Shown in pieces: positions 7,658 to 36,713 of a stretch of DNA of 53,115 nucleotides. This DNA is from Microcoleus sp. GA_180221_E-2-1-MAG-45_12 (lineage in GTDB: Bacteria > Cyanobacteriota > Cyanobacteriia > Cyanobacteriales > JAAUUE01): the NCBI GenBank assembly GCA_020692245.1, contig JAIMKT010000021.1, positions 1-53,115 of the forward strand, given 5' to 3'. The translations under genes were made by a program, and so were the position numbers. The notes below the pieces were generated by a model. The model worked only from the letters and a program-made list of their open reading frames with translations, had not been told where the DNA came from and did not search any database. The stretch's first letter is position 1. Each line of letters opens with the position of its first letter.

Positions 7658-10600
7658 ATGGTCTCGCAAATAAATAGTCCGTACACAAATAAACAGGAAG
7701 CTAAACAGGAAGCAAATTCCACCTTCCCCGCTACAGCCCCCGCCGCAAATCCAGTATTTTTTCGTACCTACAGCCGCCGGGATGCTCAGGGAAAAAGAGA
7801 AAGTTGGGAACAGGTGGGCGATCGTACCCTCAAGGGGTTAATTAACCTAGGAAAACTCTCCCTAGCAGAAATTGATCTCATCAAAAAAATGCAAGCCGGG
7901 CTAAAAACTCTCACCTCTGGGCGTTGGCTCTGGGTCGGTGGCACGCACTGGGTAGAGCAGCCCCAAAACTTCTCTGGAGCCTATAACTGTACTTCAACGA
8001 ATATTGATGACTGGCGATCGTTCGGCTTGCTGATGGATCTAGCGATGATGGGTTCTGGTACTGGAGCTGTGTTGGAACCGAAGTATATTAATCAACTCCC
8101 GCCGATCCGCAATCAACTCCAAGTAGAAATCGTGGGGGCGATCGGCACAACTCCCAAACCCGAAAGAAGGGAAGAAACTGAGGTTATTTTTCAGGGAAAT
8201 CAAGTAACAATTCACGTCGGCGACAGTCGCCAAGGTTGGGTCAAATCCTATCAAGCTCTTTTGGAACTTTCTACAGATCCAAGATTTACAGATCCAGTCC
8301 AAGTCCGGGTAGATATTAATGATGTCCGCCCCGCCGGGGAATCTCTTCAAGGCTTTGGGGGTGTGGCTAACCCGGTGAAGTTACCAGAACTTTATAACAA
8401 CTGTGCCAACATTCTTAATAAAGCTCTAGGCAGACAATTAAACTCTGTGGAATGCTGTTTATTAATTGATCAAGGCGCAGTCACGATCGTTGCTGGCAAT
8501 ATTCGACGCTGCTTACCTGCTGGAGCATTGGTACATACGCAACAGGGTTTAGTTCCTATTGAGAAAATTAGGGTTGGCGATCGTGTCTTAACGAGTAAAG
8601 GATTTTATCCTGTTACAAATTTCTTTGATCAGGGTATGCAATCTCTTTGTCGGATTAAAACTCAAGATAGTTATTTTGAATGTACTCCCGATCATAAAGT
8701 TGCTGTCCTAGAAGATGTCTATGGCAAATATCGAATGGTCAAGGCGAAAGACCTTCAAGAAGATGATCGATTGATATTTGTACCCCAAGCAATTCCCGGT
8801 AGTGCAACTGAGTTGCCAGAATTTAAAGGCGATTTGGCTCCTCAATCTAAACGAATCACTATTCCTGCACTAACATCTGATATCGCTTACTTTATCGGCT
8901 ATTTACATGGCGATGGCTCAGTTGCCAGTGATGGTTGGCGAGTAAGATTTCGGATATCTGAAGACCAGCAACAAATTACCGATAAACTCATCAATGTTGG
9001 TGCTTTGTTTGGTTTAGAAACCTATACATTGAGAACACCGGAGCAATGCCAAACTAAGGCTTTTGAACTGCAATTCAACTCTAGTGCTTTAAATCAGTAT
9101 CTATCACAATTTAAAAAAGCCTTCACTTCGATTAATATCCCCGACTGCATCCTATTGGCAACCACTAATATCCGTGAAGCATATTTAGCTGGATTAGCTG
9201 ATGCTGATGGTTGTTTTAGTCAAGGTGTGCTAGTTGCCTCAGTTCATCCAGACTTTTTACGGCAGGTTCAATCTATCTACGCTTCCTTAGGAATTACTAC
9301 TCGTTTATGCCATTCTACCCGTAAGCGCACAGGTAAATGGGAAGGTGAACTAGTCACAGTCGGTGAATCAGCTTTTGAGAAATCATCTGAATTATTCGCT
9401 AATTATTCGTTGCGCTTTGCTGACAGTCAAAGGAATCGTCCTAAGTCATTTAAGGATCATGGATTTCCTAAAGCAATGGTCAGACCGCTTGTAAATACCT
9501 ACAAATATCATTGGAGTGGTGCGCAAAAACAAATGATTGCTCCTACTGTAAAAAAACACATTTCTGAATCTACGGATTTAATTCCTATCAAAGTGGAATC
9601 AGTAGAAATGGATGTAAGAATTGCTCATACCTATGACATTGAGGTTGCGTCTATTCATGAATTTGTTTGTGAAGGTATCCTCGTTTCAAATAGCGCCGGA
9701 ATGCGGCAATTCAGTTCAGAGGATGAGTTAGGAGCTACGGCTAAGGATAATTTGTGGAGTCAGGATGAGCAGGGGAACTGGAGAATTGATCCAGAAAAAG
9801 ATGCTCTGAGAATGGCGAACCATACCCGTGTTTTTCATAGTAAACCTACGGAAGAAGAGTGCATTAATGCAGTGCGGAAGCAGTTTTATTCTGGGGAAGG
9901 AGCAATTCAATGGGCAGGGGAAGCGATTGCCCGTGCCAATATTGACCTAGTTAAAACTCCTGAACTAAAACGTGAATTCGTAGCTGCCTATGCTCAAGGA
10001 AAAGCAGAGAATTGGTTCCAAGAAAATCATCCAAATATCCCTAAGGAAGAACTAGATCATCGGTTAGCTCGTTTGGGTTTGAACCCCTGTGGGGAAATAA
10101 TTGGTTCAACTTTTCACTGTAATTTATCAGAGATTCACCTTAACCAAATTGATCCCAAAAACTTTAAGGAACAGGAAGAGGCTTTCCGGGCTGGAGCTTT
10201 GTCTGTGGCGGTGCTGTTGCATCATCAATTCCAAGAACCCCGCTATCAAACTAGTCGGCAACTAGACCCGATCGTGGGCGTATCCTTCACAGGGTTGTTT
10301 GACTTCTTTGTCCATGCCTTTGGAGCCGAGTGGTTGCAGTGGTGGGAAGCGGGCAGACCGGATACCATCAAGGGTTTGGAGTTTAAGCAACAAGAGCAGG
10401 AATATCTAAGTCGGTGGCGAGAAATTGTTCATCAACAGGTCTGGGAATATTGCGATCGCCATGGCTTGAAACGTCCAAATAGATGTACTACTGTGCAGCC
10501 AGCCGGAACCAAATCATTACTTACTGGTTCTTCTCCCGGTTGGCATCCCCCCAAAGCCCAGCGCTTTATCCGCCGGATTACCTTTAGGAAAAATGATGCG

Positions 10601-11176
10601 GTGGCTCTAGCTTGTATGGACTATGGGTATACCGTGATTCCTTCCCAAACTGACAAAGATGAAAAGGGGAATCTGCTCAATGATCCCTTTGATCCCCGTT
10701 GTACAGAATGGCTGGTGGAAATTCCCGTGGCAGTATCTTGGGCAGATTTACCGGGAGCCGACTCGATCGAGATCAGCAAATTTTCCGCCCTTGCCCAGAT
10801 GGATTTCTATATGCAGGTGCAAAAATTCTATACTCGCCATAACACCAGTGCCACGATCGAACTCCGGGAACCTGAGATTGAAGCTTTGGGTAAGCGTATT
10901 TACGAAGCCATTCGGGATGATGAAGGTTATATTTCTGCCGCTTTGTTGGCAAGATTTGACGACCACCAGACTTTCCCTCGCCTGCCCTTTGAACCCATTG
11001 ATAAGGAAACCTACGATGAGTTGATGCAGGGAGTGGTCGATCGACGGCGAACGGAGGATTTTTATGCTGCGCTCATGACCCACGACCTCGGTGCTCCAGT
11101 TAATGACATGGGAGAAGTGGGCCCGGCAGGCTGTGATTCTGATAAATGTTTGCTGCCAGAAAAACAACCAAGCTAG
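7658..11176 (+). CDS. nrdJ: Adenosylcobalamin-dependent (class II) ribonucleotide reductase with intein
   Basis: 1172 residues as translated. After removal of the 394-residue intein (residues 285-678) the mature enzyme is 778 residues, normal for the monomeric class II reductase. It makes deoxyribonucleotides using a thiyl radical generated from coenzyme B12, without oxygen. Visible motifs: YNCTSTNIDDW and MMGSGTGAVLE near the active site, LNPCGEIIGS with the radical cysteine, PAGTKSLLTGSSPG in the phosphate-binding loop, and a C-terminal Cys pair in CDSDKC for re-reduction. It stands alone; no B12 riboswitch was recognised in the 259 bp upstream. A weak NrdR-box-like palindrome at 7546-7561 is discussed under findings. 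Confidence 0.96.
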   Translation: MVSQINSPYTNKQEAKQEANSTFPATAPAANPVFFRTYSRRDAQGKRESWEQVGDRTLKGLINLGKLSLAEIDLIKKMQAGLKTLTSGRWLWVGGTHWVEQPQNFSGAYNCTSTNIDDWRSFGLLMDLAMMGSGTGAVLEPKYINQLPPIRNQLQVEIVGAIGTTPKPERREETEVIFQGNQVTIHVGDSRQGWVKSYQALLELSTDPRFTDPVQVRVDINDVRPAGESLQGFGGVANPVKLPELYNNCANILNKALGRQLNSVECCLLIDQGAVTIVAGNIRRCLPAGALVHTQQGLVPIEKIRVGDRVLTSKGFYPVTNFFDQGMQSLCRIKTQDSYFECTPDHKVAVLEDVYGKYRMVKAKDLQEDDRLIFVPQAIPGSATELPEFKGDLAPQSKRITIPALTSDIAYFIGYLHGDGSVASDGWRVRFRISEDQQQITDKLINVGALFGLETYTLRTPEQCQTKAFELQFNSSALNQYLSQFKKAFTSINIPDCILLATTNIREAYLAGLADADGCFSQGVLVASVHPDFLRQVQSIYASLGITTRLCHSTRKRTGKWEGELVTVGESAFEKSSELFANYSLRFADSQRNRPKSFKDHGFPKAMVRPLVNTYKYHWSGAQKQMIAPTVKKHISESTDLIPIKVESVEMDVRIAHTYDIEVASIHEFVCEGILVSNSAGMRQFSSEDELGATAKDNLWSQDEQGNWRIDPEKDALRMANHTRVFHSKPTEEECINAVRKQFYSGEGAIQWAGEAIARANIDLVKTPELKREFVAAYAQGKAENWFQENHPNIPKEELDHRLARLGLNPCGEIIGSTFHCNLSEIHLNQIDPKNFKEQEEAFRAGALSVAVLLHHQFQEPRYQTSRQLDPIVGVSFTGLFDFFVHAFGAEWLQWWEAGRPDTIKGLEFKQQEQEYLSRWREIVHQQVWEYCDRHGLKRPNRCTTVQPAGTKSLLTGSSPGWHPPKAQRFIRRITFRKNDAVALACMDYGYTVIPSQTDKDEKGNLLNDPFDPRCTEWLVEIPVAVSWADLPGADSIEISKFSALAQMDFYMQVQKFYTRHNTSATIELREPEIEALGKRIYEAIRDDEGYISAALLARFDDHQTFPRLPFEPIDKETYDELMQGVVDRRRTEDFYAALMTHDLGAPVNDMGEVGPAGCDSDKCLLPEKQPS
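8510..9691 (+). mobile_element. Intein with LAGLIDADG homing endonuclease, inside nrdJ
   Basis: In-frame insertion of 394 residues splitting the conserved extein run GNIRR | SAGMRQF. It begins with Cys1 (CLPAGALVHTQQGLVPIE, splicing block A), carries the block B TxxH motif in CTPDHKV, and ends with block F/G residues TYDIEVASIHEF and ILVSN before Ser+1. The two dodecapeptide motifs of a LAGLIDADG endonuclease are present: FIGYLHGDGSV (about residues 411-421) and LAGLADADGCF (about 508-518). The acidic catalytic residues appear intact, so homing may still work. The penultimate residue is Ser, not the usual His. The insertion point lies next to the active-site region, as for many RNR inteins. 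Confidence 0.95.
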
Positions 11177-18883: not shown

Positions 18884-20692
18884 TCATGGTCCCAGAAAAA
18901 TCGAGACATATTTTCCTTGCTGACTGCCAATAGGTAAGGTGTTAAATTTATCAGAGGTAAATTTTGTTTTAAGGACTTCTTTCAAGTAGTTTGCTCCATC
19001 AATATTTATTGCTGTATGACGAATCTCATTTGCAGGTGTTGTAATACTTGTATTTGGATAACCATATGTTGTAAAAAACTCATCATCTTTAGGAGGAATA
19101 ATCGGGATATTACTCTGTACAAATTTAGAGCTAAACATATTTTTGATATCTCTTGCTTTCGCCTCTAAATCAGGTCTATTAGAGTGATAGTAAATACGAA
19201 TCTCATATTCTTTTAGCACCCTACTCCTCATCTCAGCAAGTAAATCTTCAGGACTTCCCCAAGAATATTTTATAGTAATATCTGTATAAATAAGTTTCAA
19301 GATTTGCTGCTTCTGTTCATCACTTGTAGCTTTAGTATAGTCTTGAATTTTTTCTTTTGTAAGTAAATTAGTGTAGATGTCATAAACTGAGTTACAGGAT
19401 TGACATAATTCTTCAGCGTAGATAAGATACTGTTTTGCTTTCACTAAGTCCCCATCTAATAAAGCTTTAAATCCTTCCTTTTCATTCTCAAGTGCCGTTG
19501 CCAGCCGAGTCATTTTTACTTGTTCTGTCGATATTGGAGTAGGTGTTGTTTCAACTCCCTGATTATTGCCCGGAGAATAAAACTGATTTATTGAAAATAA
19601 TATGACAATAATAATTCCTCCAGCAGAAGCTAGAGACAAGAGAATTCTCTTATTTAATAAGGGAGTAGGGATTGGATTGTTTATGGGAGTACGGATTGAA
19701 TCTGATCTGGGAGTAGAGATGGGATTAGGAGATATTTCTGTGTTTTGATTAGATGGAAAGGTGATGGCTAGAGGTAATTCACGATCGTAGGGATTAGTGC
19801 CAATAGAGGGATGTTGTCTATATTCAGTGTCTTCCTGTACCTTTGCACGCACGTATTCAAATAGCTCCCCGATCGTTACAAAACCATTTTGATTGAGGTC
19901 TGCTTCCCCTTGCATTCCTCTTAGTAGGTAATGAGTAAAAACACCATGTCCTCCGCCCCATCTGGCATCTTCAAAGGACACCTCGGCGGCTTCGGCTGAA
20001 GTAAGTAAGGCAATGCCGCCCCTTGTTGTGCTTACTTCTTTCAAATAGCGATTTACCAAGGCAGTACTGTTCGTTGTGCCTCTACGACCTATCCCGCCGC
20101 CAATGGCTGCACTATGGCAAGTATCAGCCAAAATAACGACCCGTTCAGATAATAAATTTTCTCGCAGAGATAGGTCAATTTCCCGCATCGGTAGAGCAGT
20201 TCCGGCAATATCATTGGGGTCGGTATCATGAGTTAGTAAATAAACATTTCCGGGTCTATCAAAATCAGGAGATCCATGACAGGCAAAGTAGATAATCACT
20301 AAATCTTCTCGACCCGGTTTTTTAAGAAAACTCCGCAGAGCCTTTGTAACATTCGCTGTTGTGGCTTCATGGTTGATGAGCTTAACAATATGGTCAGGTT
20401 TGAAGTTTCCTCCTATGGGGCTAAGCATGAGATTATAAAATGCTTCTGCATCCCGATCGGCATACTTCAAATTCAAGCTCTCATTCTTATACTTTGACAC
20501 TCCAATCATAATTGCCCAGCGATCGACATAGGTATCATAGGAATCTGGAAGTTCGACACTGAATCCTCGATTTTGAGCGTGATCAGATGGGTTTATATTT
20601 TCCTCTTCTGTCATTTCGATGTCCTCAACTAAAGCGAATTTATCACTAATGGCTTTCAAAATCTGAGTATATCTAGAGAGCATGAAAGCCAT
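18884..20692 (-). CDS. Caspase-family protease (orthocaspase) with C-terminal membrane anchor and extra domain
   Basis: 602 residues. The peptidase C14/p20 domain occupies ~55-310 and opens with DRWAIMIGVSKYKNESLNLK. The catalytic His is in FACHGSPDF (~137) and the Cys in LADTCHSAAIGGG (~189). DLNQNGFVTIGEL (~267) resembles an EF-hand loop and could bind calcium, which activates many metacaspases. A Pro/Ser/Thr linker leads to one transmembrane helix (~345-365). The C-terminal ~230 residues hold a helical part and an alpha/beta stretch starting EIRIYYHSNRPDLEAKARDI, reminiscent of SPOR/LytR_C-like folds (weak). It starts 30 bp after the second caspase gene. Expected to cleave after Arg/Lys. 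Role unknown. Confidence 0.88.
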   Translation of the reverse strand: MAFMLSRYTQILKAISDKFALVEDIEMTEEENINPSDHAQNRGFSVELPDSYDTYVDRWAIMIGVSKYKNESLNLKYADRDAEAFYNLMLSPIGGNFKPDHIVKLINHEATTANVTKALRSFLKKPGREDLVIIYFACHGSPDFDRPGNVYLLTHDTDPNDIAGTALPMREIDLSLRENLLSERVVILADTCHSAAIGGGIGRRGTTNSTALVNRYLKEVSTTRGGIALLTSAEAAEVSFEDARWGGGHGVFTHYLLRGMQGEADLNQNGFVTIGELFEYVRAKVQEDTEYRQHPSIGTNPYDRELPLAITFPSNQNTEISPNPISTPRSDSIRTPINNPIPTPLLNKRILLSLASAGGIIIVILFSINQFYSPGNNQGVETTPTPISTEQVKMTRLATALENEKEGFKALLDGDLVKAKQYLIYAEELCQSCNSVYDIYTNLLTKEKIQDYTKATSDEQKQQILKLIYTDITIKYSWGSPEDLLAEMRSRVLKEYEIRIYYHSNRPDLEAKARDIKNMFSSKFVQSNIPIIPPKDDEFFTTYGYPNTSITTPANEIRHTAINIDGANYLKEVLKTKFTSDKFNTLPIGSQQGKYVSIFLGP

Positions 20693-20722
20693 ATCGTTAC
20701 TTAAATATCCTTGCCATAATCC

Positions 20723-22798
20723 CTAATTAGATGCTTTAACAATCGTCATTATTAACTGCTTGGTTGTCCATTCAGTACTAGGAGATGCGGCAACTGTTAA
20801 ACTGCGATTTATAGGTTGTTCATCATCGATCGCCCCCAATAGTGCCGCCAAGGGATTACCCCCACCCCTTCCACCCCGCCCAGATGGTAAAGGTTCATCT
20901 AGAGAAGGTAGTTCTAAAACTCGGTAGTTGGCAGCATCTAAAGTCCCAAAAACTTTGACAGTATTTTCTCCAGAATCATCTTTTTCATCTAGGATGGGCT
21001 TTAACGGCAGAATTTTCTCTCGCCCTGCTTCTAAGGTGATAAAGAACTCATTTTTATTTGATGGCAGAATCTGTTCGATCGCCCACTCCGCATCTAAATT
21101 TAAAACAGCAATATTAAGGGTCTGGATAGAATCATTGCGAATAGATAGAAAAACATACTCGCCAACTTTTACCGTTGGTTTATTAGGGTCTACAAATTTG
21201 GTTAATTTCTCTTTTTTAGGAATCGGATCGCCCGTATCATAGGTATCTGATGTCCCTAGCCATGCAACTGCCAGCTTGCCAGAAAGTGGCGAATCAGTAT
21301 CTACATTGTCAATCTCTAAAGTAGCTTTATACTTGGCAAGATGGACAAGCCGTTTGATAACTTTGGCTGGAGCCTGAGGATCAGTAATTTTCGCTGGGGG
21401 ACTAATATTTTTGAGGAGTCGATCGCCACTATCGCAAATTTCATACTCACCCTTATCATTAATACTGACTATGTAGTCAATTCCTGCACCATCTGCGGAT
21501 ACCTCTACCCAGCCATTACCCGGCAAAGCCTTGGCGATCGCGAGTAACGCCGGATCATTTGGAGGAATTAAGGATACTGTTCTTACTAAATTGATAGAGG
21601 CGGAAATTTGTACAGCTCGATCGCCTTGTTCCACTTGCCGAGTTTTGCCTGCAATCGGTTGGAGTCTACACAGTGATTGAGAGCCGCCACGCTGTATGAT
21701 AGTCGCGATCGCAATCCGATCCTCTTTTTTGGTCAAATCAGTGGTTCCAAGGGGATAAATAGCAAATTCAGCTCCCTTAGACACCCCATTTGCCTGCCCG
21801 ATCGCCAGCCATGCTTGAGGCTCACCCTTCTCATTGGATTCCACCTTCATCACGTCAACAGCAAAGACTATCTCGCCATAATCAGCTCCAAAAATCTTGC
21901 GATTGCCCTCACCCAAAAGTACGGGAGTTTGAGAGGGAAATTGGCTGTGAATTTTGGCATTAAGGCGATCGAACAGATCCTTATAGGTTTGACCAGAAAA
22001 AGGTTGTTTCAATGTATCCAGAATCCAATAGGTCAAGGCTCCGTTTTTTTCTTTGGTTGCCCGATTGAAGGGAAATTCAAAGGCAAATTCATTCTGACGA
22101 CAGGCTGCCAAAAGTACATAATCGTTGGATTCTGGGACTCCTCCTGCCTTGAGTCCACGAGATTCCCCTTCTGTTAAGGAATGCCAGAGCTTCACCAAAA
22201 CCTCTGGTTCGGCAACAGGTTGAAAGCTAGCCTGAAGAGGTTTATTATCCTCCACATTCATGCCCCTGATTTCAGCCTCGCCCCTTGTCTCCCCACCAGC
22301 ATGACAACAATCTAGAACTAGAGTGATCACCAGTTTTTTGGCGACTAACTCCTGCAAAAGTTGGGCAAGCTCTAGATCACGGAGATACTGCCCTTCTGAA
22401 GTCCCAATATCAGTGGGAACTAACCCTTCATCAATTTCATTAGTGCCTTTAATATCAGGAAATACCGTCTTTGCTCGTCCTCCATGTCCAGAGTAGTGAA
22501 TGTAAACCAAGGAATTCTCTGGAGCCATTTCACCCAACTTCCTGAAGGCAGCAATCATGTTGGTACGAGTAGGCAGTTTATTAGGTGATTCTAGAGGGAT
22601 TTTCTCATTCTCTGGGCTAGGAGAAGCGGTTAATTTCAAAATCCGGTTTTCTGGAACTTTTGGAAAATCCTTGAGAAAGGCTTCTACATGATTAATATCC
22701 CGCACGCACCCACTCAAATTTTTATAGTAGCTACCATCAGGAAGGCTATTTGGCATGTAGCAATCAACACCTATGAGTAATGCATATAAATCTGCCAT
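20723..22798 (-). CDS. Caspase-family protease (orthocaspase) with C-terminal beta domain
   Basis: 691 residues. The C14 caspase domain (~1-305) starts with YALLIGVDCYMPNSLPDG; the catalytic His is in IHYSGHGGRA (~104) and the Cys in LVLDCCHAGG (~164). A middle part (~310-460) is beta-rich. The C-terminal part resembles DUF4384-like domains (YVFLSIRNDSIQTLNIAVLN, then AEWAIEQILPSNKNEFFITL), often found on bacterial caspases, with a Gly-rich loop near residue 645. No signal or membrane segment. It follows the M15 peptidase gene by 127 bp and precedes the membrane caspase by 30 bp. Substrate unknown; orthocaspases are linked to stress and cell death in cyanobacteria. Confidence 0.88.
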   Translation of the reverse strand: MADLYALLIGVDCYMPNSLPDGSYYKNLSGCVRDINHVEAFLKDFPKVPENRILKLTASPSPENEKIPLESPNKLPTRTNMIAAFRKLGEMAPENSLVYIHYSGHGGRAKTVFPDIKGTNEIDEGLVPTDIGTSEGQYLRDLELAQLLQELVAKKLVITLVLDCCHAGGETRGEAEIRGMNVEDNKPLQASFQPVAEPEVLVKLWHSLTEGESRGLKAGGVPESNDYVLLAACRQNEFAFEFPFNRATKEKNGALTYWILDTLKQPFSGQTYKDLFDRLNAKIHSQFPSQTPVLLGEGNRKIFGADYGEIVFAVDVMKVESNEKGEPQAWLAIGQANGVSKGAEFAIYPLGTTDLTKKEDRIAIATIIQRGGSQSLCRLQPIAGKTRQVEQGDRAVQISASINLVRTVSLIPPNDPALLAIAKALPGNGWVEVSADGAGIDYIVSINDKGEYEICDSGDRLLKNISPPAKITDPQAPAKVIKRLVHLAKYKATLEIDNVDTDSPLSGKLAVAWLGTSDTYDTGDPIPKKEKLTKFVDPNKPTVKVGEYVFLSIRNDSIQTLNIAVLNLDAEWAIEQILPSNKNEFFITLEAGREKILPLKPILDEKDDSGENTVKVFGTLDAANYRVLELPSLDEPLPSGRGGRGGGNPLAALLGAIDDEQPINRSLTVAASPSTEWTTKQLIMTIVKASN

Positions 22799-22925: not shown

Positions 22926-23834
22926 TTAAGCTAATTGCCCAAGGGTTTTCGGCCCGACAATCCCATCAGGGGTCAAATTTTTCCGCTTTTGAAACTCTTT
23001 AACAGCTTTATCTGTTTCCGGACCAAATTCCCCATCGGCAGCAACAATAATCTCCGCCTTTTTCAGTGCTTCCTGAAGCCGGACTACATCAGAGCCTTCC
23101 ATTCTGGGTTGACTGAGTTTTAGGACTCTGGGCTTATTATCCCAAGGAGCCTTAGCAAAACCAAAGGCAGGCGATCGATTCAGCGCATCCTCTGTTTCCC
23201 CACCTTCAGTAAAAATACCATCCTCATCAATTTTTTCGTCTGGATGATTAATATTCCAAAGTTGTTGGAAAGCCCTAATCGAATCTTGGCGAATATCCCT
23301 TGTTTCGCTACCGACATAATCAAAGTGTGGTGGATCTCCCGGCAAAGGCTCCCAACCATGGGGAATCAAGAAAGAGTCCCAACCCCTAGGGTCTTCAACA
23401 TCGATCGCCAACCCCGTTTGATGGTTACTCCGTCCGGGAGGGGCAACAGGATAAGAATTATTGAACCGATCGTTAAATAACAGCATTTGCTGAGCGATGG
23501 TGCGATAGGAAGAATTCACCAGCAGCTTTATGCCCCGGGCTTGAATGGCTCTTTGCAAAGCCTGTTTACCGGGAGCTTGGACATAGGGAAAAGCCGCATC
23601 CCCCAGATCCACATTTAAATCGTCATAACTTACAAAAACACCGGGGAGCATGAGTTGCAACTGGTAAATTAACTGCTGCGACAATCCATTAACTACAGCA
23701 GTAGCTCCAAAGGGGGCATCTTTTAGTAATCCATGAAAACTGCCCTTACTTTCGATCGCATCCCGTTCATTGATATCTAAACACGTTTCCACGATTATTG
23801 ATTGATTAGAAATATCGTCAATTGAATAGCTCAT
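22926..23834 (-). CDS. M15-type peptidoglycan peptidase with peptidoglycan-binding domain
   Basis: 302 residues from ATG 23834 (GGAG on the minus strand at 23844-23841, 6 nt upstream; the TTG at 23846 overlaps it). The M15/VanY-like zinc domain (~100-195) shows NSSYRTIAQQ, zinc ligands in SNHQTGLAIDVED and PPHFDYVG, and Asp rather than Glu three residues before the last His, as in the L-Ala-D-Glu endopeptidase branch that includes phage endolysins and CwlK. A C-terminal PG_binding_1 repeat follows (~235-302, GSDVVRLQEALKKAEI, TLGQLA). No signal peptide is visible, so release to the wall would need lysis or another route. It lies 55 bp after the lysozyme gene. Confidence 0.88.
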   Translation of the reverse strand: MSYSIDDISNQSIIVETCLDINERDAIESKGSFHGLLKDAPFGATAVVNGLSQQLIYQLQLMLPGVFVSYDDLNVDLGDAAFPYVQAPGKQALQRAIQARGIKLLVNSSYRTIAQQMLLFNDRFNNSYPVAPPGRSNHQTGLAIDVEDPRGWDSFLIPHGWEPLPGDPPHFDYVGSETRDIRQDSIRAFQQLWNINHPDEKIDEDGIFTEGGETEDALNRSPAFGFAKAPWDNKPRVLKLSQPRMEGSDVVRLQEALKKAEIIVAADGEFGPETDKAVKEFQKRKNLTPDGIVGPKTLGQLA

Positions 23835-23889
23835 GATGATCTCCAAAATTTCTAAGTTTTCTATTTCTAAATTTTCTAAAAGAAAATAA

Positions 23890-24762
23890 TTACACCCCTA
23901 AACTGCTTCGAGTCCCAGCGCCGACCACTCCATCTACTACTAGTCCTTTTTTTTGCTGAAACTGACGAACGGCTCGATCGGTATCTTTGCCAAAGCAGCC
24001 ATCGGCTTCAATCTCAATCCCCGCTTGTTTCAGAGCATTTTGCACCTGACGCACATCATCGCCCGTCATCAAGGGATCGACTAGTTTTAGTACCCTGACT
24101 GTCACCTCTTGAAAATTTGAGAAAGATTCCCAAGGCTGACTCAAAAACAAGGCTTGTTCAGCTTTCCGTCTGCGGGTCAAACCTAATAAAGGTTGTCCTC
24201 CCGCCTTATTCCATTTAGGAAATTCGTTAGCAGCCATCTGAATATCCCCTGCATTCAAAAGTCGCAACAGGGTTGATTCTGCAAGAGCTTGGGGGCCAAC
24301 ATTAAAACTAAAAGCTACTAGCGCAGAAAATTGATCGGAGTTGATGGGGACTTGAACAAGTTCTTCTACAACTGTCTCAAATTTTTCTAAATCCTCTCTG
24401 AGAAAGCTTTCTGCTTCAGTTTGAGTAATACTCATTCCTTCAAAAACACCTTTCGTGTGTCCATAGCCAATCGTCAATACACCAACTCCATCGTCATAGC
24501 ATATTAGTTCGCAACCTTCAAAAAATGTAATCAGCTTTAATCCAGAAGGGTTAATGTGTCGATCGCCCCGACGTTGCTCTCCATCCTCTACTTCTGGGGG
24601 AACTTTCCCGGAAGGCGCAATCCTAAAAGTCTTAGCTTGCGTGAAATTTAGAATTCTACGCAATTTTCTCACTTCACCACCTGTCTCAATTAATCGAATT
24701 GCTCGATCGTCATCTAGTTCATAAACACGACCGTCGTCAAAAAACTCAAGAGACTTGTCCAT
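23890..24762 (-). CDS. GH24 (T4-type) lysozyme with peptidoglycan-binding domain
   Basis: 290 residues from ATG 24762; a GTG at 24774 is an alternative start. After a ~75-residue acidic N-terminal region of no recognised family comes a GH24 lysozyme (~78-210). The catalytic triad spacing E-x8-D-x5-T is satisfied in FEGCELICYDDGVGVLTIGY, and QFSALVAFSFNVG and GLTRRRKAE are typical. A PG_binding_1 domain (~225-290) closes the protein. It cuts the glycan strands of peptidoglycan. There is no signal peptide, as in phage endolysins, but no phage genes surround it. First gene of the run lysozyme, M15 peptidase, caspase, caspase. Confidence 0.9.
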   Translation of the reverse strand: MDKSLEFFDDGRVYELDDDRAIRLIETGGEVRKLRRILNFTQAKTFRIAPSGKVPPEVEDGEQRRGDRHINPSGLKLITFFEGCELICYDDGVGVLTIGYGHTKGVFEGMSITQTEAESFLREDLEKFETVVEELVQVPINSDQFSALVAFSFNVGPQALAESTLLRLLNAGDIQMAANEFPKWNKAGGQPLLGLTRRRKAEQALFLSQPWESFSNFQEVTVRVLKLVDPLMTGDDVRQVQNALKQAGIEIEADGCFGKDTDRAVRQFQQKKGLVVDGVVGAGTRSSLGV

Positions 24763-24819
24763 GACTTTTCTCACTAAAAATGTCTATTTTATTGTTTGTT
24801 TCAAAATTCTATTAAGGTC

Positions 24820-26826: not shown

Positions 26827-27225
26827 ATGGTGAAAGTATCACAGAATACAACAAAGCAAGTGAACATTTCCAGTTGGATTTGGTTAGAAGAATCACAAAC
26901 CCAAAGCTCATCTAAAAGCCCCTCTAAGCCCCCTACTCCATATCAACAACTCCTTGCTAAGCTCCGAAAAATTGATCCCCTGCAACCCATCAAACAGTGG
27001 CTAGATAGCCTAGAAGTCAAGAATTCCCGTATTGCCCATCAAATTTGTAAAGTGATCCCGTCTCAATGCCCCTTTGAGAGAGATGTTAAACTTTTTGGCA
27101 GGACTCTGATGCATATCCCCCCCCTGTGTAAGTTAAATCCCATTTATGACCAACTGGTGGGTTTGAGGTTCCGAGCCTTGTGCTATCTCTCTGATCAGAG
27201 TGAAGATATCTCTGCCTACTGTTAA
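26827..27225 (+). CDS. Mo-dependent nitrogenase C-terminus family protein
   Basis: 132 residues. The C-terminal ~90 residues match the domain found at the end of some cyanobacterial nitrogenase-associated proteins and as stand-alone copies: IKQWLDSLEV, IAHQICKVIPSQCPFERD, IPPLCKLNPIYDQLVGLRFR and a final YC. The N-terminal 40 residues are low-complexity (Ser/Gln/Pro). Despite the family name, stand-alone copies are common in non-fixing strains and their function is unknown. No nif gene is in the window. It appears to be a single-gene transcript with a long upstream region. Confidence 0.85.
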   Translation: MVKVSQNTTKQVNISSWIWLEESQTQSSSKSPSKPPTPYQQLLAKLRKIDPLQPIKQWLDSLEVKNSRIAHQICKVIPSQCPFERDVKLFGRTLMHIPPLCKLNPIYDQLVGLRFRALCYLSDQSEDISAYC

Positions 27226-33700: not shown

Positions 33701-33795
33701 CTGTCACCCACATGCCCCAATTCAAAGAGGCTTTTCAAACTAGAATTGAAGTCCGCAAAACTAACCAAGGATCGCAGGTTTACATTGCTACTTAA
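30724..33795 (+). CDS. sbcC: SbcC-type nuclease ATPase (Rad50-like)
   Basis: 1023 residues with split ABC ATPase halves around a Gln-rich coiled coil. The N-terminal half begins IPLHLKLKNFFSYQDAAIDF and has Walker A CGANGAGKSSLLEAI. The zinc hook CPLC lies mid-protein (AAVCPLCESEL, ~498). The C-terminal half has the signature TYSGGESFRINFAIRLALA and Walker B MLIVDEGFGTQD. With SbcD it forms an ATP-dependent nuclease that opens hairpins and blocked DNA ends. sbcD is not adjacent, as is usual in many cyanobacteria. Length is normal. Confidence 0.94.
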   Translation: MIPLHLKLKNFFSYQDAAIDFRGLHTACICGANGAGKSSLLEAITWAVWGKSRAGLEDEVIHSGAIDVRVDFTFKSNQQTYRIIRGRSRGQGGSLEFQLETNQGFISLTGKGLKATQEVIINYLKLDYDTFINSAYLRQGQADSFMLRKPAERKQILASLLKLDQYEELAEQAKTEAKQFQGQAKYIEQNLETLARTLEQRENFTLELTRIETIIAELQAAKNQTETEIFALKEQQQQRQNWSQNLDIRQQQYQSLQQECDRHQQEINQVTDRQKHLQSLLDQAEEITLKYREFQQLQTTQDILDQKFLRFQEIQRQREQLQQQWQQQINDLKLQIGQTNHELSLLETKELEVQEILRTKPKVLEEMEKLQQLRQQLKELDNLKFSVSPLLQRQQELEKSIALEVAKHQAQLQQFQANQTRLQQKYSGADTLREQFLELSSTIQSLDKKRIYQQRVQEKIQRHRDALVGYQQEAKGCTRRQQELSVKLATLLDNAAVCPLCESELSEHDHQRVITKTRQEETQIQEQLWHLQEQETVAQRELQNLQREGETLQKELQTYEQLLGKQGQLEANLEAIDESYSQLQQVSKEIIDLENTLATNNYALDLQQELVQINSHITKLNYDEQTHALLRGEVDKLRVVENRYFRLEEAGKEQAKAMAKKPPLLDKLLQLETTFQHWTGKAGNSGNSGNNLDQSDHPLSHPLQLKICELDQQIITLEYDREAHNRLNQTLKIQQVWLFRHQELQRCQQEYPQVLDRLQQLQTLLNNYTQQQQSVAQQVQELKTKLTANPDPQAAIHNLDKQLQAQTIELHQQLALQGGQQQQLKYLDQAQEKFTQGQAELKEIQQQVKIHEELAKAFGKNGIQLMIIENVLPQLEAHTNQILSRLTASQLSVQILTQKAGGTKRNTKMIDTLDIIIGDVKGTRPYETYSGGESFRINFAIRLALAKILAQRAGTSLQMLIVDEGFGTQDSDGCDHLIAAINAIASDFACILTVTHMPQFKEAFQTRIEVRKTNQGSQVYIAT

Positions 33796-33830
33796 AAGAT
33801 AATATAGTAAGCTCCAAAAGGGTTGTCAAT

Positions 33831-33866
33831 ATTAGCAATTAATAAAATATTAGCAATTAATAAAAT
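33831..33866 (+). repeat. Perfect 18-bp tandem duplication before the SDR-dioxygenase gene
   Basis: The unit ATTAGCAATTAATAAAAT occurs twice head to tail, ending one base before the ATG at 33868. It fills the place where an RBS would be expected and no purine-rich RBS is seen. A recent slippage duplication is likely. Confidence 0.85.
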
Positions 33867-33867
33867 C

Positions 33868-35511
33868 ATGCAGGTTTGTATTGTGACGGGCGGTAATTCT
33901 GGGGTTGGTTTATCTACTGCTTTAGGCTTGGCAAAATTGGGATATCACGTTTTTATTGCCTGTCGTTCTCAGAAAAAAGCAATGGGCGCGATCGAGCATA
34001 TTTACCAAATTACTGGCAACCCAAAGGTAGAATATTTACCCCTCAATCTTGCTTCCCTAGAATCAGTCCGCCAGTGTGTGCAGATATTTAAATCTAGAAA
34101 TTTACCTCTACATATTTTAGTTAATAATGCCGGAATTTTTCACCATCGAGGTACTACCCAAGAAGGTTTTGAATTAATCTGGGGAACGAATTACCTAGGA
34201 CACTTTTTACTAACCTATTTATTATTAGACAAGCTCCAAGCCTCTGCTCCTAGCCGGATAGTGATGGTGTCCTCGGATTTAGCCCTAAAACCAAAAACCA
34301 TCAACTGGGATTTGTTTACTAAAAGCACGCAGCTAAATTTTCTAGAAGCCTATAATCAATCTAAATTTTGTTTACTCATCCTCACTAACTATTTAGCTCA
34401 TTATCTACAGCAATCTAAATCTATTAAGCAAGACAACCAAATTCAAGATAACCAAATTCAAGCTAATCAAGTAATTATTAACGCTGTTCATCCGGGATTT
34501 GTGCGATCAAATATCACGATCGGGCATCGTTTGAGTAGATATTTAGGATTAGGAATCAGCCCAGAGCAAGGGGCTTATAGCAGTTTGTTGTGTGCAACCT
34601 CTCCAGATTTCGCCTTAGTTACGGGTAAATTTATTGATCCCAAAGGGCAGGAAATTATGCTGCCTAGTTTGGTAGAGAATCAGGATTTAGGGCGAGAATT
34701 GTGGGAGAGGAGCTTAGATTGGACTGGGGAGAATCAAGATATAAAAAGTATTGAGAAACAGCGAATTATCTATGATGACACTGATGGTATTTGGGGACCT
34801 TATAATTTGAAATTCACTCCTGAAGCCATGGCAGAAATTTCTCACCATATTTTCCAAAAAATCCTGCCCTATCCCCCCCCAAAAACTCTCCTATTACAGG
34901 CTTTAAAATCCTTAATTCGGCTTCAATTTGGTTCAATAATCCTGCTAGTTATTCAATGCTACAAACGCCAATTTTATATGGAAAGGCATCTGGATTCTGA
35001 GGCAGTGTGGAAGATTTGTATTGATGCTGGTTTATTGCAGGTAGTTAAAGAGCATTTAGGCGAGGATTTACAATTGTGGCGATCGGAACTCTGGGTAAAC
35101 TATCCCTCTGGGCAATTAATTCCTTTTTGGCACAGAGATATCTATCCCCATCTCCTCCACGGCACAGGAAAAACTATTAATATTTATATTGCTTTAACTG
35201 AAGTTATGGCGACTAATGGCTTTGAATATATTCCAGTCGATCGAGTTGATAACTGTCGGGTGAAAATTATTGATCCCTTTAGTGGCAATCATTTTTTTCA
35301 AGTTCCTCAAGAGATCGAACAAACAGCAATCCCGGTAGTTCTCAAAGCTGGAGAATTTGTTTTATTTAATGATCAACTAGTGCATCGCTCTGTCTACAAT
35401 CGCAGTGGTAAAGTCCGCCTCTCTTTGACCTTACGAGTCGCCCCATCAACGATGAAATTCCTCCCCGGCTATACTTCCAATTACCAAAAACCAAAGCGTT
35501 TACCAATTTAG
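33868..35511 (+). CDS. Short-chain dehydrogenase fused to PhyH-type Fe/2OG dioxygenase
   Basis: 547 residues from ATG 33868; the upstream TTG extension only reads through the tandem repeat. Residues 1-300 are an SDR of the protochlorophyllide-reductase/retinol-dehydrogenase type: VTGGNSGVGLS, NNAG, catalytic Tyr and Lys in EAYNQSKF, and a Gln/Asn-rich insertion. Residues ~330-547 are a phytanoyl-CoA dioxygenase-like domain: metal HxD in WHRD (FWHRDIYPHL), distal His in NDQLVHRSVYN and the 2-oxoglutarate Arg in GKVRLSLTL. Fusion of the two is unusual; together they could act on one hydrophobic substrate (oxidation and hydroxylation). It lies 72 bp after sbcC; no functional link is apparent. 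Substrate unknown. Confidence 0.85.
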   Translation: MQVCIVTGGNSGVGLSTALGLAKLGYHVFIACRSQKKAMGAIEHIYQITGNPKVEYLPLNLASLESVRQCVQIFKSRNLPLHILVNNAGIFHHRGTTQEGFELIWGTNYLGHFLLTYLLLDKLQASAPSRIVMVSSDLALKPKTINWDLFTKSTQLNFLEAYNQSKFCLLILTNYLAHYLQQSKSIKQDNQIQDNQIQANQVIINAVHPGFVRSNITIGHRLSRYLGLGISPEQGAYSSLLCATSPDFALVTGKFIDPKGQEIMLPSLVENQDLGRELWERSLDWTGENQDIKSIEKQRIIYDDTDGIWGPYNLKFTPEAMAEISHHIFQKILPYPPPKTLLLQALKSLIRLQFGSIILLVIQCYKRQFYMERHLDSEAVWKICIDAGLLQVVKEHLGEDLQLWRSELWVNYPSGQLIPFWHRDIYPHLLHGTGKTINIYIALTEVMATNGFEYIPVDRVDNCRVKIIDPFSGNHFFQVPQEIEQTAIPVVLKAGEFVLFNDQLVHRSVYNRSGKVRLSLTLRVAPSTMKFLPGYTSNYQKPKRLPI

Positions 35512-35618
35512 TTTTAATTTTCAATCTTACGGAGGTCACAAAGCCTTACTGAGGGCGCAAAGCCTTGCACCCCTACAAAAATCTATTTGTATCAGATATT
35601 TAGGGACATGATATAAAA

Positions 35619-36713
35619 CTAGCTTTTGACTGCTTCTGGGGTGATGAACATGGCATCGCCAAAGGAATAAAAACGGTACTGCTCCTCGATCGCCTCCTGA
35701 TAGAGTTCTAAAAGTCTCGATCGACCAATCAGGGAAGCCACAAGGAGTAATAAGCTCGATCGGGGTAGGTGAAAATTAGTAATCATCCCATCCACCACCT
35801 GCCATTGATAGCCCGGATAAATGAACAGGTCAGTTTTTCCCATAAAAGGTTGCAACTCTCCCATGGCCGCCGCTCCTTCCAAGGTTCGCACTGAGGTAGT
35901 CCCCACCGCAATTACTCTGCCTCCATTCTGCTTAGTTTGCTGAATCTTTGCTACCGCTTCTGAAGAAATCTCAAACCATTCTCCGTGCATCTTGTGGGTT
36001 GTAATATCTTCAACCTCCAGAGGACGAAAAGTACCTACCCCAACATGGAGAGTGACAAAGGTAGTATTAATACCCTTGGCTTTGAGGGTAGCAAGTAATT
36101 CCTCGGTGAAATGGAGTCCGGCGGTGGGGGCGGCGGCAGAGCCGAGTTGCTGGGCATAGACAGTCTGGTACTGCTCTGGGACAGCCTCAGAATCATTAAT
36201 GTAGGGCGGCAAGGGGACATGACCAAATTCTTGGAGGAGATCGGCAAAATTTTGCTGGGAAGAAGTATTAAACTCTAGCCACCGACCTCCAGTAGCTTCA
36301 TCTCGCTCGATTACCGTGGCTCGAAAGGGTGAATCTTCTAGGTATTCTGTGGGGCTATGGCTAAATAAAATCTGCGATCCCAGTTTTAGGCGCTTCCCCG
36401 GCTTCACCAGAGCTAACCAATAATTAGGCTTTTTTTCTTCTAGCAACAATACTTCTACGGGCGCACCAGTGGTTTTGTATCCGTAGAGGCGGGCGGGTAA
36501 AACTTTAGTATTGTTCAGGACTAGTAAATCACCGGATTTTAAGTATTCTGGCAAGTCTTGGAATATACGATGTTCATGGCGATCGCCATCTTTTACCACC
36601 AGTAATTTTGATCTATCCCTTGGAATGACAGGAGTTTGGGCAATACGTTCTAGAGGCAATTCATAGCTGTAGCTAGATAGTAAGTAATCTGAGTTAGCAG
36701 TCATGGTCATCAT
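35619..36713 (-). CDS. queA: tRNA preQ1 S-adenosylmethionine ribosyltransferase-isomerase
   Basis: 364 residues, full length for QueA. Signature stretches are YELPLERIAQTPVIPRDRSK near the start, LLVLNNTKVLPARLYG, AAPTAGLHFT and VGVGTFRPLEVEDI, then GMITNFHLPRSSLLLLVAS. It transfers and rearranges the ribosyl group of SAM onto preQ1 in tRNA to give epoxyqueuosine. The start is ambiguous between three near ATGs (MMTMTANSDYLL); the family usually begins close to the YLL segment. It is a single gene convergent with the SDR-dioxygenase gene. Confidence 0.97.
   Translation of the reverse strand: MMTMTANSDYLLSSYSYELPLERIAQTPVIPRDRSKLLVVKDGDRHEHRIFQDLPEYLKSGDLLVLNNTKVLPARLYGYKTTGAPVEVLLLEEKKPNYWLALVKPGKRLKLGSQILFSHSPTEYLEDSPFRATVIERDEATGGRWLEFNTSSQQNFADLLQEFGHVPLPPYINDSEAVPEQYQTVYAQQLGSAAAPTAGLHFTEELLATLKAKGINTTFVTLHVGVGTFRPLEVEDITTHKMHGEWFEISSEAVAKIQQTKQNGGRVIAVGTTSVRTLEGAAAMGELQPFMGKTDLFIYPGYQWQVVDGMITNFHLPRSSLLLLVASLIGRSRLLELYQEAIEEQYRFYSFGDAMFITPEAVKS

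What the first reader, a model, noticed from the sequence alone, without database searches (positions are those of the whole stretch)
33831..35511. SDR fused to a PhyH dioxygenase, behind an 18-bp tandem duplication
A reductase/dehydrogenase and an Fe/2OG hydroxylase in one chain suggests sequential chemistry on one lipid-like or isoprenoid substrate. The duplication replaces the expected RBS and could change expression.
Basis: partly seen in the sequence, partly recalled or inferred. Interest (0 to 1): 0.5.

Follow-up and report, generated by a model that had tools for sequence, protein, structure and literature searches.

The report
Conserved cyanobacterial reductase–hydroxylase fusion enzyme
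This gene makes one protein that joins a reductase to an iron-dependent hydroxylase; the same joint enzyme recurs in a number of other cyanobacteria with both active sites intact, but its substrate is unknown and the small DNA repeat in front of it is ordinary for this genome.

Summary
The fusion is real. One frame (ATG 33868 to stop 35511, 547 aa) carries an SDR domain and a PhyH-type Fe(II)/2OG oxygenase domain. It is no sequencing artefact: 49 of 388 sampled genomes of the same order (own genome included), in 11 families, hold a close relative of the hydroxylase half, and 44 of these read both halves in one frame. Nine tested cofactor and catalytic residues are identical in 44 of 44. Both halves are under purifying selection. 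Neither half of this family was met as an intact gene of its own. The SDR half is a separate branch beside LPOR and retinol-dehydrogenase-like SDRs and lacks LPOR's insertion loop. The PhyH half is nearest the SyrB2/CytC3 chlorinating enzymes but keeps the iron-binding Asp, so hydroxylation is expected. No consistently placed neighbour spans families, so the substrate is open; lipid or isoprenoid is unsupported. The 18-bp duplication is real, but a congener lacks it and also lacks a ribosome-binding site, as do most genes sampled here. Best reading: a conserved, patchily distributed bifunctional family for which no description was found.

The parts
33868..35511 (+). coding sequence of the SDR-PhyH fusion protein, 547 aa, ATG start
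   Evidence: start supported by 11 of 43 homologues and the congener
33874..34413 (+). SDR domain as matched by PF00106 (residues 3-182); the homologous SDR half runs to about residue 287 (window 34728). Cofactor motif TGGNSGVG 7-14, R33, N108, S136, Y162, K166
   Evidence: conservation
34408..34470 (+). about 20-residue insertion in the SDR half carrying an in-frame 15-bp tandem repeat (34429-34470); the longest at this place in alignment A1; the congener G001 has a still longer version
34729..34794 (+). inter-domain linker, residues 288-309, length 8-56 among 36 aligned proteins
34798..35487 (+). PhyH-type Fe(II)/2OG oxygenase half, about residues 311-540; Pfam match residues 376-517; iron ligands H422, D424, H506; 2OG-binding R517 (role of R517 recalled)
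33828..33866 (+). 18-bp tandem duplication (2.2 copies) just upstream of the ATG
   Evidence: absent from congener L118
30724..33795 (+). upstream neighbour sbcC (exonuclease subunit), 72 bp before the ATG; same order in the congener with an 11-bp gap
35619..36713 (-). downstream neighbour queA, convergent

Best explanation
The gene encodes a genuine two-headed enzyme. Shown: the N-terminal half is a complete SDR with the Asn-Ser-Tyr-Lys set, the C-terminal half is a PhyH-type oxygenase with a complete His-x-Asp...His iron site, and the two have been kept in one chain across 11 families of one cyanobacterial order. Inferred: the SDR half is an NADP(H)-dependent carbonyl reductase or alcohol dehydrogenase (invariant Arg after the second strand, recalled as an NADP sign). 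The oxygenase half hydroxylates an aliphatic carbon using O2 and 2-oxoglutarate. The two act one after the other on the same small molecule, for instance hydroxylation followed by oxidation of the new alcohol to a ketone, or reduction followed by hydroxylation nearby, with the fusion keeping the intermediate together. The substrate is unknown. The patchy distribution, a plasmid-borne copy, broken copies and a gene tree that mixes families suggest an accessory, horizontally exchanged function rather than core metabolism.
For: Domains. Conservation of the fusion: 49 strong relatives of the hydroxylase half among 388 genomes, own genome included; 44 read as one frame with both halves (window included). 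With the SDR half as query, 38 of 291 genomes hold the family at 48% identity or more, and the next best, standalone SDRs lie at 37-43%. R33, N108, S136, Y162, K166, H422, D424, H506, R517 identical in 44 of 44. dN/dS against the congener about 0.12 for the SDR half and 0.15 for the PhyH half. Identity of the two halves to the window protein is correlated over 35 homologues, r = 0.73. The 19 fused SDR halves put in the tree form one clade, 100/100. Patchiness: 13 of 386 genomes of the phylum panel hold the fusion, all in the same order; a copy lies on a 1.04-Mb plasmid of Nostoc sp. UHCC 0926.
Against: No activity, substrate, ligand or usable structure: the one model failed (mean pLDDT 36.9 from a 4-sequence alignment). 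No gene neighbour is shared at a consistent place across families (25 largest clusters seen), so nothing ties the two heads to one pathway; co-action on one substrate rests on the fusion alone. Five of the 49 strong relatives are not intact in one frame: G284, G304 and G313 broken, G055 truncated before the second iron His, G001 split by a contig end. One further remnant, G152, has eight stops in one piece. So the function can be lost.
Confidence: 0.6

Rival explanations
1. The two heads act on different substrates or different steps of one pathway that do not follow directly; the fusion only keeps their amounts equal or places them together.
For: A variable, poorly conserved linker (8-56 residues; median identity to the window protein 32% against 65% and 57% for the halves) fits two independent domains on a tether; no consistently placed neighbour across families.
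Against: The halves were not met apart as intact genes of this family, which is more than needed for mere co-expression.
Confidence: 0.25
2. One head is catalytically silent and serves as a binding or dimerisation module.
For: Known in other fused enzymes (recalled); no activity shown here.
Against: All nine tested residues of both active sites are identical in 44 of 44; similar low dN/dS in both halves.
Confidence: 0.07
3. The C-terminal half is a halogenase, as in its nearest named family.
For: Best NCBIfam match is TIGR01762 chlorinating enzyme (E 1.3e-11, 44.4 bits against a cut-off of 226.3); best solved relatives SyrB2 and CytC3; 10 of 13 plasmid records that match this half are annotated chlorinating enzyme.
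Against: SyrB2 has Ala118 where hydroxylases have the iron-binding Asp (PMC2767507, passages seen); here Asp424, two residues after His422, is present in 44 of 44. The profile alignment to SyrB2 places a one-residue insertion at this spot, so the equivalence of Asp424 and Ala118 rests on spacing from the His.
Confidence: 0.03
4. The SDR half is an LPOR-like photoenzyme acting on a chlorophyll precursor.
For: Closest solved chains are LPORs; fused and LPOR clades are sisters when FabG-like rows are included (98/85).
Against: LPOR's 25-30-residue insertion loop (PMC6761149, passages seen) is missing in the 19 fused rows compared; LPOR-invariant Thr145 and Cys224 (numbering of L002) are Ser in all 19 and Phe in 95%. 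NCBIfam scores PRK06197 (145 bits; calling it RDH-like is recalled) above LPOR (91.6 bits), both far below cut-off. Without FabG rows the fused, LPOR and RDH-like rows are three separate clades.
Confidence: 0.04
5. Two neighbouring genes merged by a sequencing or assembly error.
For: None found.
Against: Same fusion in one frame in 44 genomes and in separately sequenced named records (Arthrospira, Anabaena, Planktothricoides, Nostoc).
Confidence: 0.01

Closest known systems
LPOR / retinol-dehydrogenase-like classical SDRs (TIGR01289; PRK06197 group)
   Same: Rossmann motif, Tyr-Lys pair, Arg after strand 2; about 29-46% identity over parts of the half
   Different: Own clade (100/100); no LPOR insertion loop; LPOR Thr145 and Cys224 not kept; fused to an oxygenase
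PhyH / phytanoyl-CoA dioxygenase superfamily (PF05721)
   Same: Passes the Pfam cut-off (43.9 against 22 bits); His-x-Asp...His and Arg present
   Different: No evidence for an acyl-CoA substrate; met only attached to the SDR half when intact
SyrB2/CytC3 chlorinating enzymes (TIGR01762)
   Same: Shared blocks RHLD, LG, WR-S/T-E, YP, WH in the profile alignment to SyrB2 (positions 88-251 of 260)
   Different: Far below the family cut-off; iron-binding Asp present instead of Ala, so hydroxylase type
SxtS/SxtU-type pairs of separate PhyH and SDR enzymes in a cyanobacterial pathway (recalled; not compared here)
   Same: The same two enzyme classes used in one pathway
   Different: Separate genes in a cluster; relation to this family untested

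Membership tests
Classical SDR (PF00106) | TGxxxGxG cofactor motif | tested here: met
   TGGNSGVG in the window protein; Gly8, Gly12 and Gly14 in 35 of 36, the 36th lacking the stretch at a contig end
Classical SDR (PF00106) | Asn-Ser-Tyr-Lys catalytic set | tested here: met
   N108, S136, Y162, K166 in 44 of 44
Classical SDR (PF00106) | NAD(P)(H)-dependent activity | not testable with these tools
   needs protein
LPOR (TIGR01289) | score above the curated cut-off | tested here: not met
   91.6 against 331.35 bits
LPOR (TIGR01289) | 25-30-residue LPOR insertion loop | tested here: not met
   loop columns gapped in the 19 fused rows compared; loop described in PMC6761149 (passages)
PhyH (PF05721) | score above the gathering cut-off | tested here: met
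   43.9 against 22 bits
PhyH (PF05721) | 2-His-1-carboxylate iron site and 2OG-binding basic residue | tested here: met
   H422, D424, H506, R517 in 44 of 44; the role of R517 is recalled
PhyH (PF05721) | 2OG and O2 dependent hydroxylation | not testable with these tools
   needs protein
Chlorinating enzyme (TIGR01762) | score above the curated cut-off | tested here: not met
   44.4 against 226.3 bits
Chlorinating enzyme (TIGR01762) | Ala in place of the iron-binding Asp, as in SyrB2 | tested here: not met
   Asp424 in 44 of 44; Ala118 of SyrB2 from PMC2767507 (passages)

The most novel reading that the evidence does not exclude
An undescribed bifunctional enzyme family of Cyanobacteriales in which a third branch of the LPOR/retinol-dehydrogenase SDR group hands its product directly to a SyrB2-like hydroxylase (or takes it from there), making a hydroxy-ketone or diol motif on an unknown, horizontally exchanged specialised metabolite or pigment-derived compound.
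Probability: 0.3. Interest if true: 0.6.

Novelty: new variant of a known kind. Interest (0 to 1): 0.4.

Why it matters
A fixed fusion is a hint that two reactions belong together. Here the hint is conserved across 11 families of one order, yet no paper found describes it and no gene cluster explains it. A single gene with two predicted chemistries is easy to express and assay, so an orphan step in cyanobacterial metabolism could be tested directly. The SDR half also seems to be a further branch beside LPOR, which bears on how the chlorophyll photoenzyme arose from ordinary SDRs.

Tried and rejected
RBS hypothesis for the duplication: rejected. TTG 33823 start coding through the repeat: possible on paper, but 11 of 43 homologues and the congener open exactly at the ATG and the congener lacks the repeat. 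Substrate from gene neighbours: ORFs of 50 fetched stretches (up to about 9 kb either side, less at contig ends) were clustered and the 25 largest clusters looked at. Consistent order is shared only within a genus or between two genera of one family: cbiD-guaA upstream in ten genomes of g53, a cytochrome-b561-like gene upstream in four of g2, two gene families downstream in six stretches of g83 and g112 (not identified), sbcC in the window's genus. Clusters that span families (WD40, ABC-transporter and kinase-like proteins) sit at varying distances and strands. These look like plain synteny or common gene families and were not used. Structure prediction with the sequences allowed (window, L038-L040) failed at pLDDT 36.9, so no fold search was run. 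The standalone SDRs of G414 that matched the profile are RDH-like SDRs with no PhyH-like ORF noticed beside them (by eye). Standalone PhyH relatives (eight matches in seven further genomes and G093, 34% identity or less; seven of eight also found by tblastn) are distant; one lies near glycosyltransferase- and sulfotransferase-like genes (names by eye) and was not pursued. Occurrence outside Cyanobacteria could be checked only in plasmids: of 366 records that match, one (Nostoc) is covered to 80% or more; the other 19 of the 20 rows listed match the SDR half only, one as far as residue 332; 13 records match the PhyH half. The other 346 records were not listed. Literature: searches gave no description of the fusion in their listings; two papers were opened, for passages only.

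Full report
Observation. The frame 33868-35511 on the + strand is open for 547 codons and carries an SDR domain (PF00106, residues 3-182) and a PhyH domain (PF05721, residues 376-517). Between sbcC (stop at 33795) and the ATG lie 72 bp, with an 18-bp unit repeated 2.2 times without mismatch at 33828-33866. The window lies in a 4.2-Mb genome.

The fusion is not an error. With residues 281-547 as query, 57 of 388 genomes of the same order match at E 1e-5 or better. By my reading of the table, 49 are strong (E 1.6e-44 or better, the window's own genome included), one holds a broken remnant (G152) and seven hold only distant standalone PhyH proteins. The 49 fall in 11 families (f1, f2, f3, f9, f10, f15, f21, f25, f26, f28, f33). 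I fetched the surroundings of the other 48 and of G152. In 44 of 49 a single ORF covers both halves; one of these, G212, is cut at its N-terminus by a contig end. The five others are G284, G304 and G313 (broken), G055 (ORF ends after the first iron ligands, tail seen) and G001 (residues 1-156 and 118-542 on two contigs). Named records with the fusion are Arthrospira sp. PCC 9108, Anabaena sp. FACHB-1237 and Planktothricoides sp. SR001 and plasmid pn1 of Nostoc sp. UHCC 0926.

Neither half was met alone. With the SDR half as query, 45 of 291 genomes match at E 1e-28 or better. Thirty-eight of them belong to this family, at 48% identity or more. The other seven (six of family f29, and G186) hold standalone SDRs at 37-43%. 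In a phylum-wide panel of 386 genomes, at E 1e-60 or better, the full profile found 13 fused genes, all in the same order, and one genome (G414) with standalone RDH-like SDRs. Among 72,556 plasmid records only the Nostoc plasmid is covered over 80% or more of the protein. How many of the 386 genomes lie outside the order was not listed, so the limit to this order is provisional.

Both active sites are intact. In an alignment of all 44 single-frame proteins, R33, N108, S136, Y162, K166 (SDR) and H422, D424, H506, R517 (oxygenase) are identical in 44 of 44 (a first count, on 36 of the 44, is). Nei-Gojobori dN/dS between the window gene and G001 is about 0.12 (0.059/0.476 and 0.083/0.676) for two stretches of the SDR half and 0.15 (0.075/0.497) for the PhyH half (the second stretch includes a contig edge where a few residues of G001 look wrong). 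Both halves are thus held by selection.

What the halves are. The SDR half scores best against PRK06197 (145 bits) and lower against LPOR (91.6 bits), both far below their cut-offs; LPORs are the nearest solved chains. In a tree of 46 SDRs the 19 fused halves are one clade (100/100) and sister to LPOR (98/85) when distant FabG-like rows are included. Without those rows and with six SDRs from plasmids of other bacteria, fused, LPOR and RDH-like rows are three clades. The tool warned of long branches in both trees, so the sister relation is tentative. LPOR's insertion and its Thr145 and Cys224 (numbering of L002) are not shared, while the canonical Ser is present; the half is therefore an ordinary-type SDR, not an LPOR. 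The PhyH half matches the chlorinating-enzyme family weakly, and a profile of 13 members aligns to SyrB2 over positions 88-251 of 260 (E 9.2e-10). SyrB2 has Ala118 where hydroxylases have Asp (PMC2767507, passages seen); here Asp424 is present in 44 of 44, so a hydroxylase is expected. That alignment puts a one-residue insertion at this spot, so the equivalence rests on spacing from the His; and the paper notes that the difference between the two classes goes beyond this one residue.

How it probably works. Inferred: an NADP(H)-dependent reductase/dehydrogenase and a 2OG-dependent hydroxylase act in turn on one small molecule. The order is not known. Nothing found points to a lipid or isoprenoid. 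No neighbour sits at a consistent place across families (25 largest clusters). The patchy occurrence, the plasmid copy, the broken copies and the grouping of an f33 protein (L080) with the window protein (f1; 90/83, 92/76; within a five-row clade of 100/99 in both) suggest an accessory, exchanged function.

The duplication. In congener G001 the same sbcC-fusion order holds with only 11 bp between stop and ATG, no repeat, and no GGAG/AGGA/GAGG there; so the repeat does not replace a lost RBS. In 313,578 bases of the genome (window plus stretches of 20 contigs) only 49 of 212 ORFs called by a simple rule have such a motif at -18 to -5. There are 357 tandem-array rows, 18 of them perfect with period 12 or more, including this one. 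Random sequences gave none as strong (0 in 20 of window length), so such repeats are real products of this genome's history, but common in it. A second in-frame repeat (15 bp, 34429-34470) makes an insertion in the SDR half that most aligned relatives lack.

Limits. The structure prediction failed (mean pLDDT 36.9). No paper describing the fusion appeared in the listings; the library lacks most subscription journals. Function is therefore inferred from sequence only.

Noticed in passing
window 18884-22798 (-): Two adjacent caspase-domain (Peptidase_C14) genes, 602 and 691 aa.
   Followed up: no
window 22926-24774 (-): A phage-lysozyme gene with a peptidoglycan-binding domain beside a second gene with the same binding domain.
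   Followed up: no
window 26827-27225 (+): A small Mo-nitro_C (Mo-dependent nitrogenase C-terminus) protein; a relative also lies 0.5-0.7 kb downstream of the fusion gene in six genomes of genus g53. May be chance.
   Followed up: partly
window 35526-35566: A 19-bp imperfect tandem repeat (2.2 copies) directly after the fusion gene, so the gene is bracketed by short tandem repeats.
   Followed up: no
window 7658-11176 (+): A 1172-aa ORF with no Pfam match at E 1e-15.
   Followed up: no
L018 and L032 (G020, G003): LPOR-like SDRs (323-324 aa) that branch beside LPOR but lack its conserved Thr145 and Cys224; a possible further LPOR-like group (long branches).
   Followed up: no
L114 9880-10200 (G284): A decayed copy of the fusion gene whose middle is interrupted by a run of short CCCTATT/CCCTGTT-type repeats.
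   Followed up: partly
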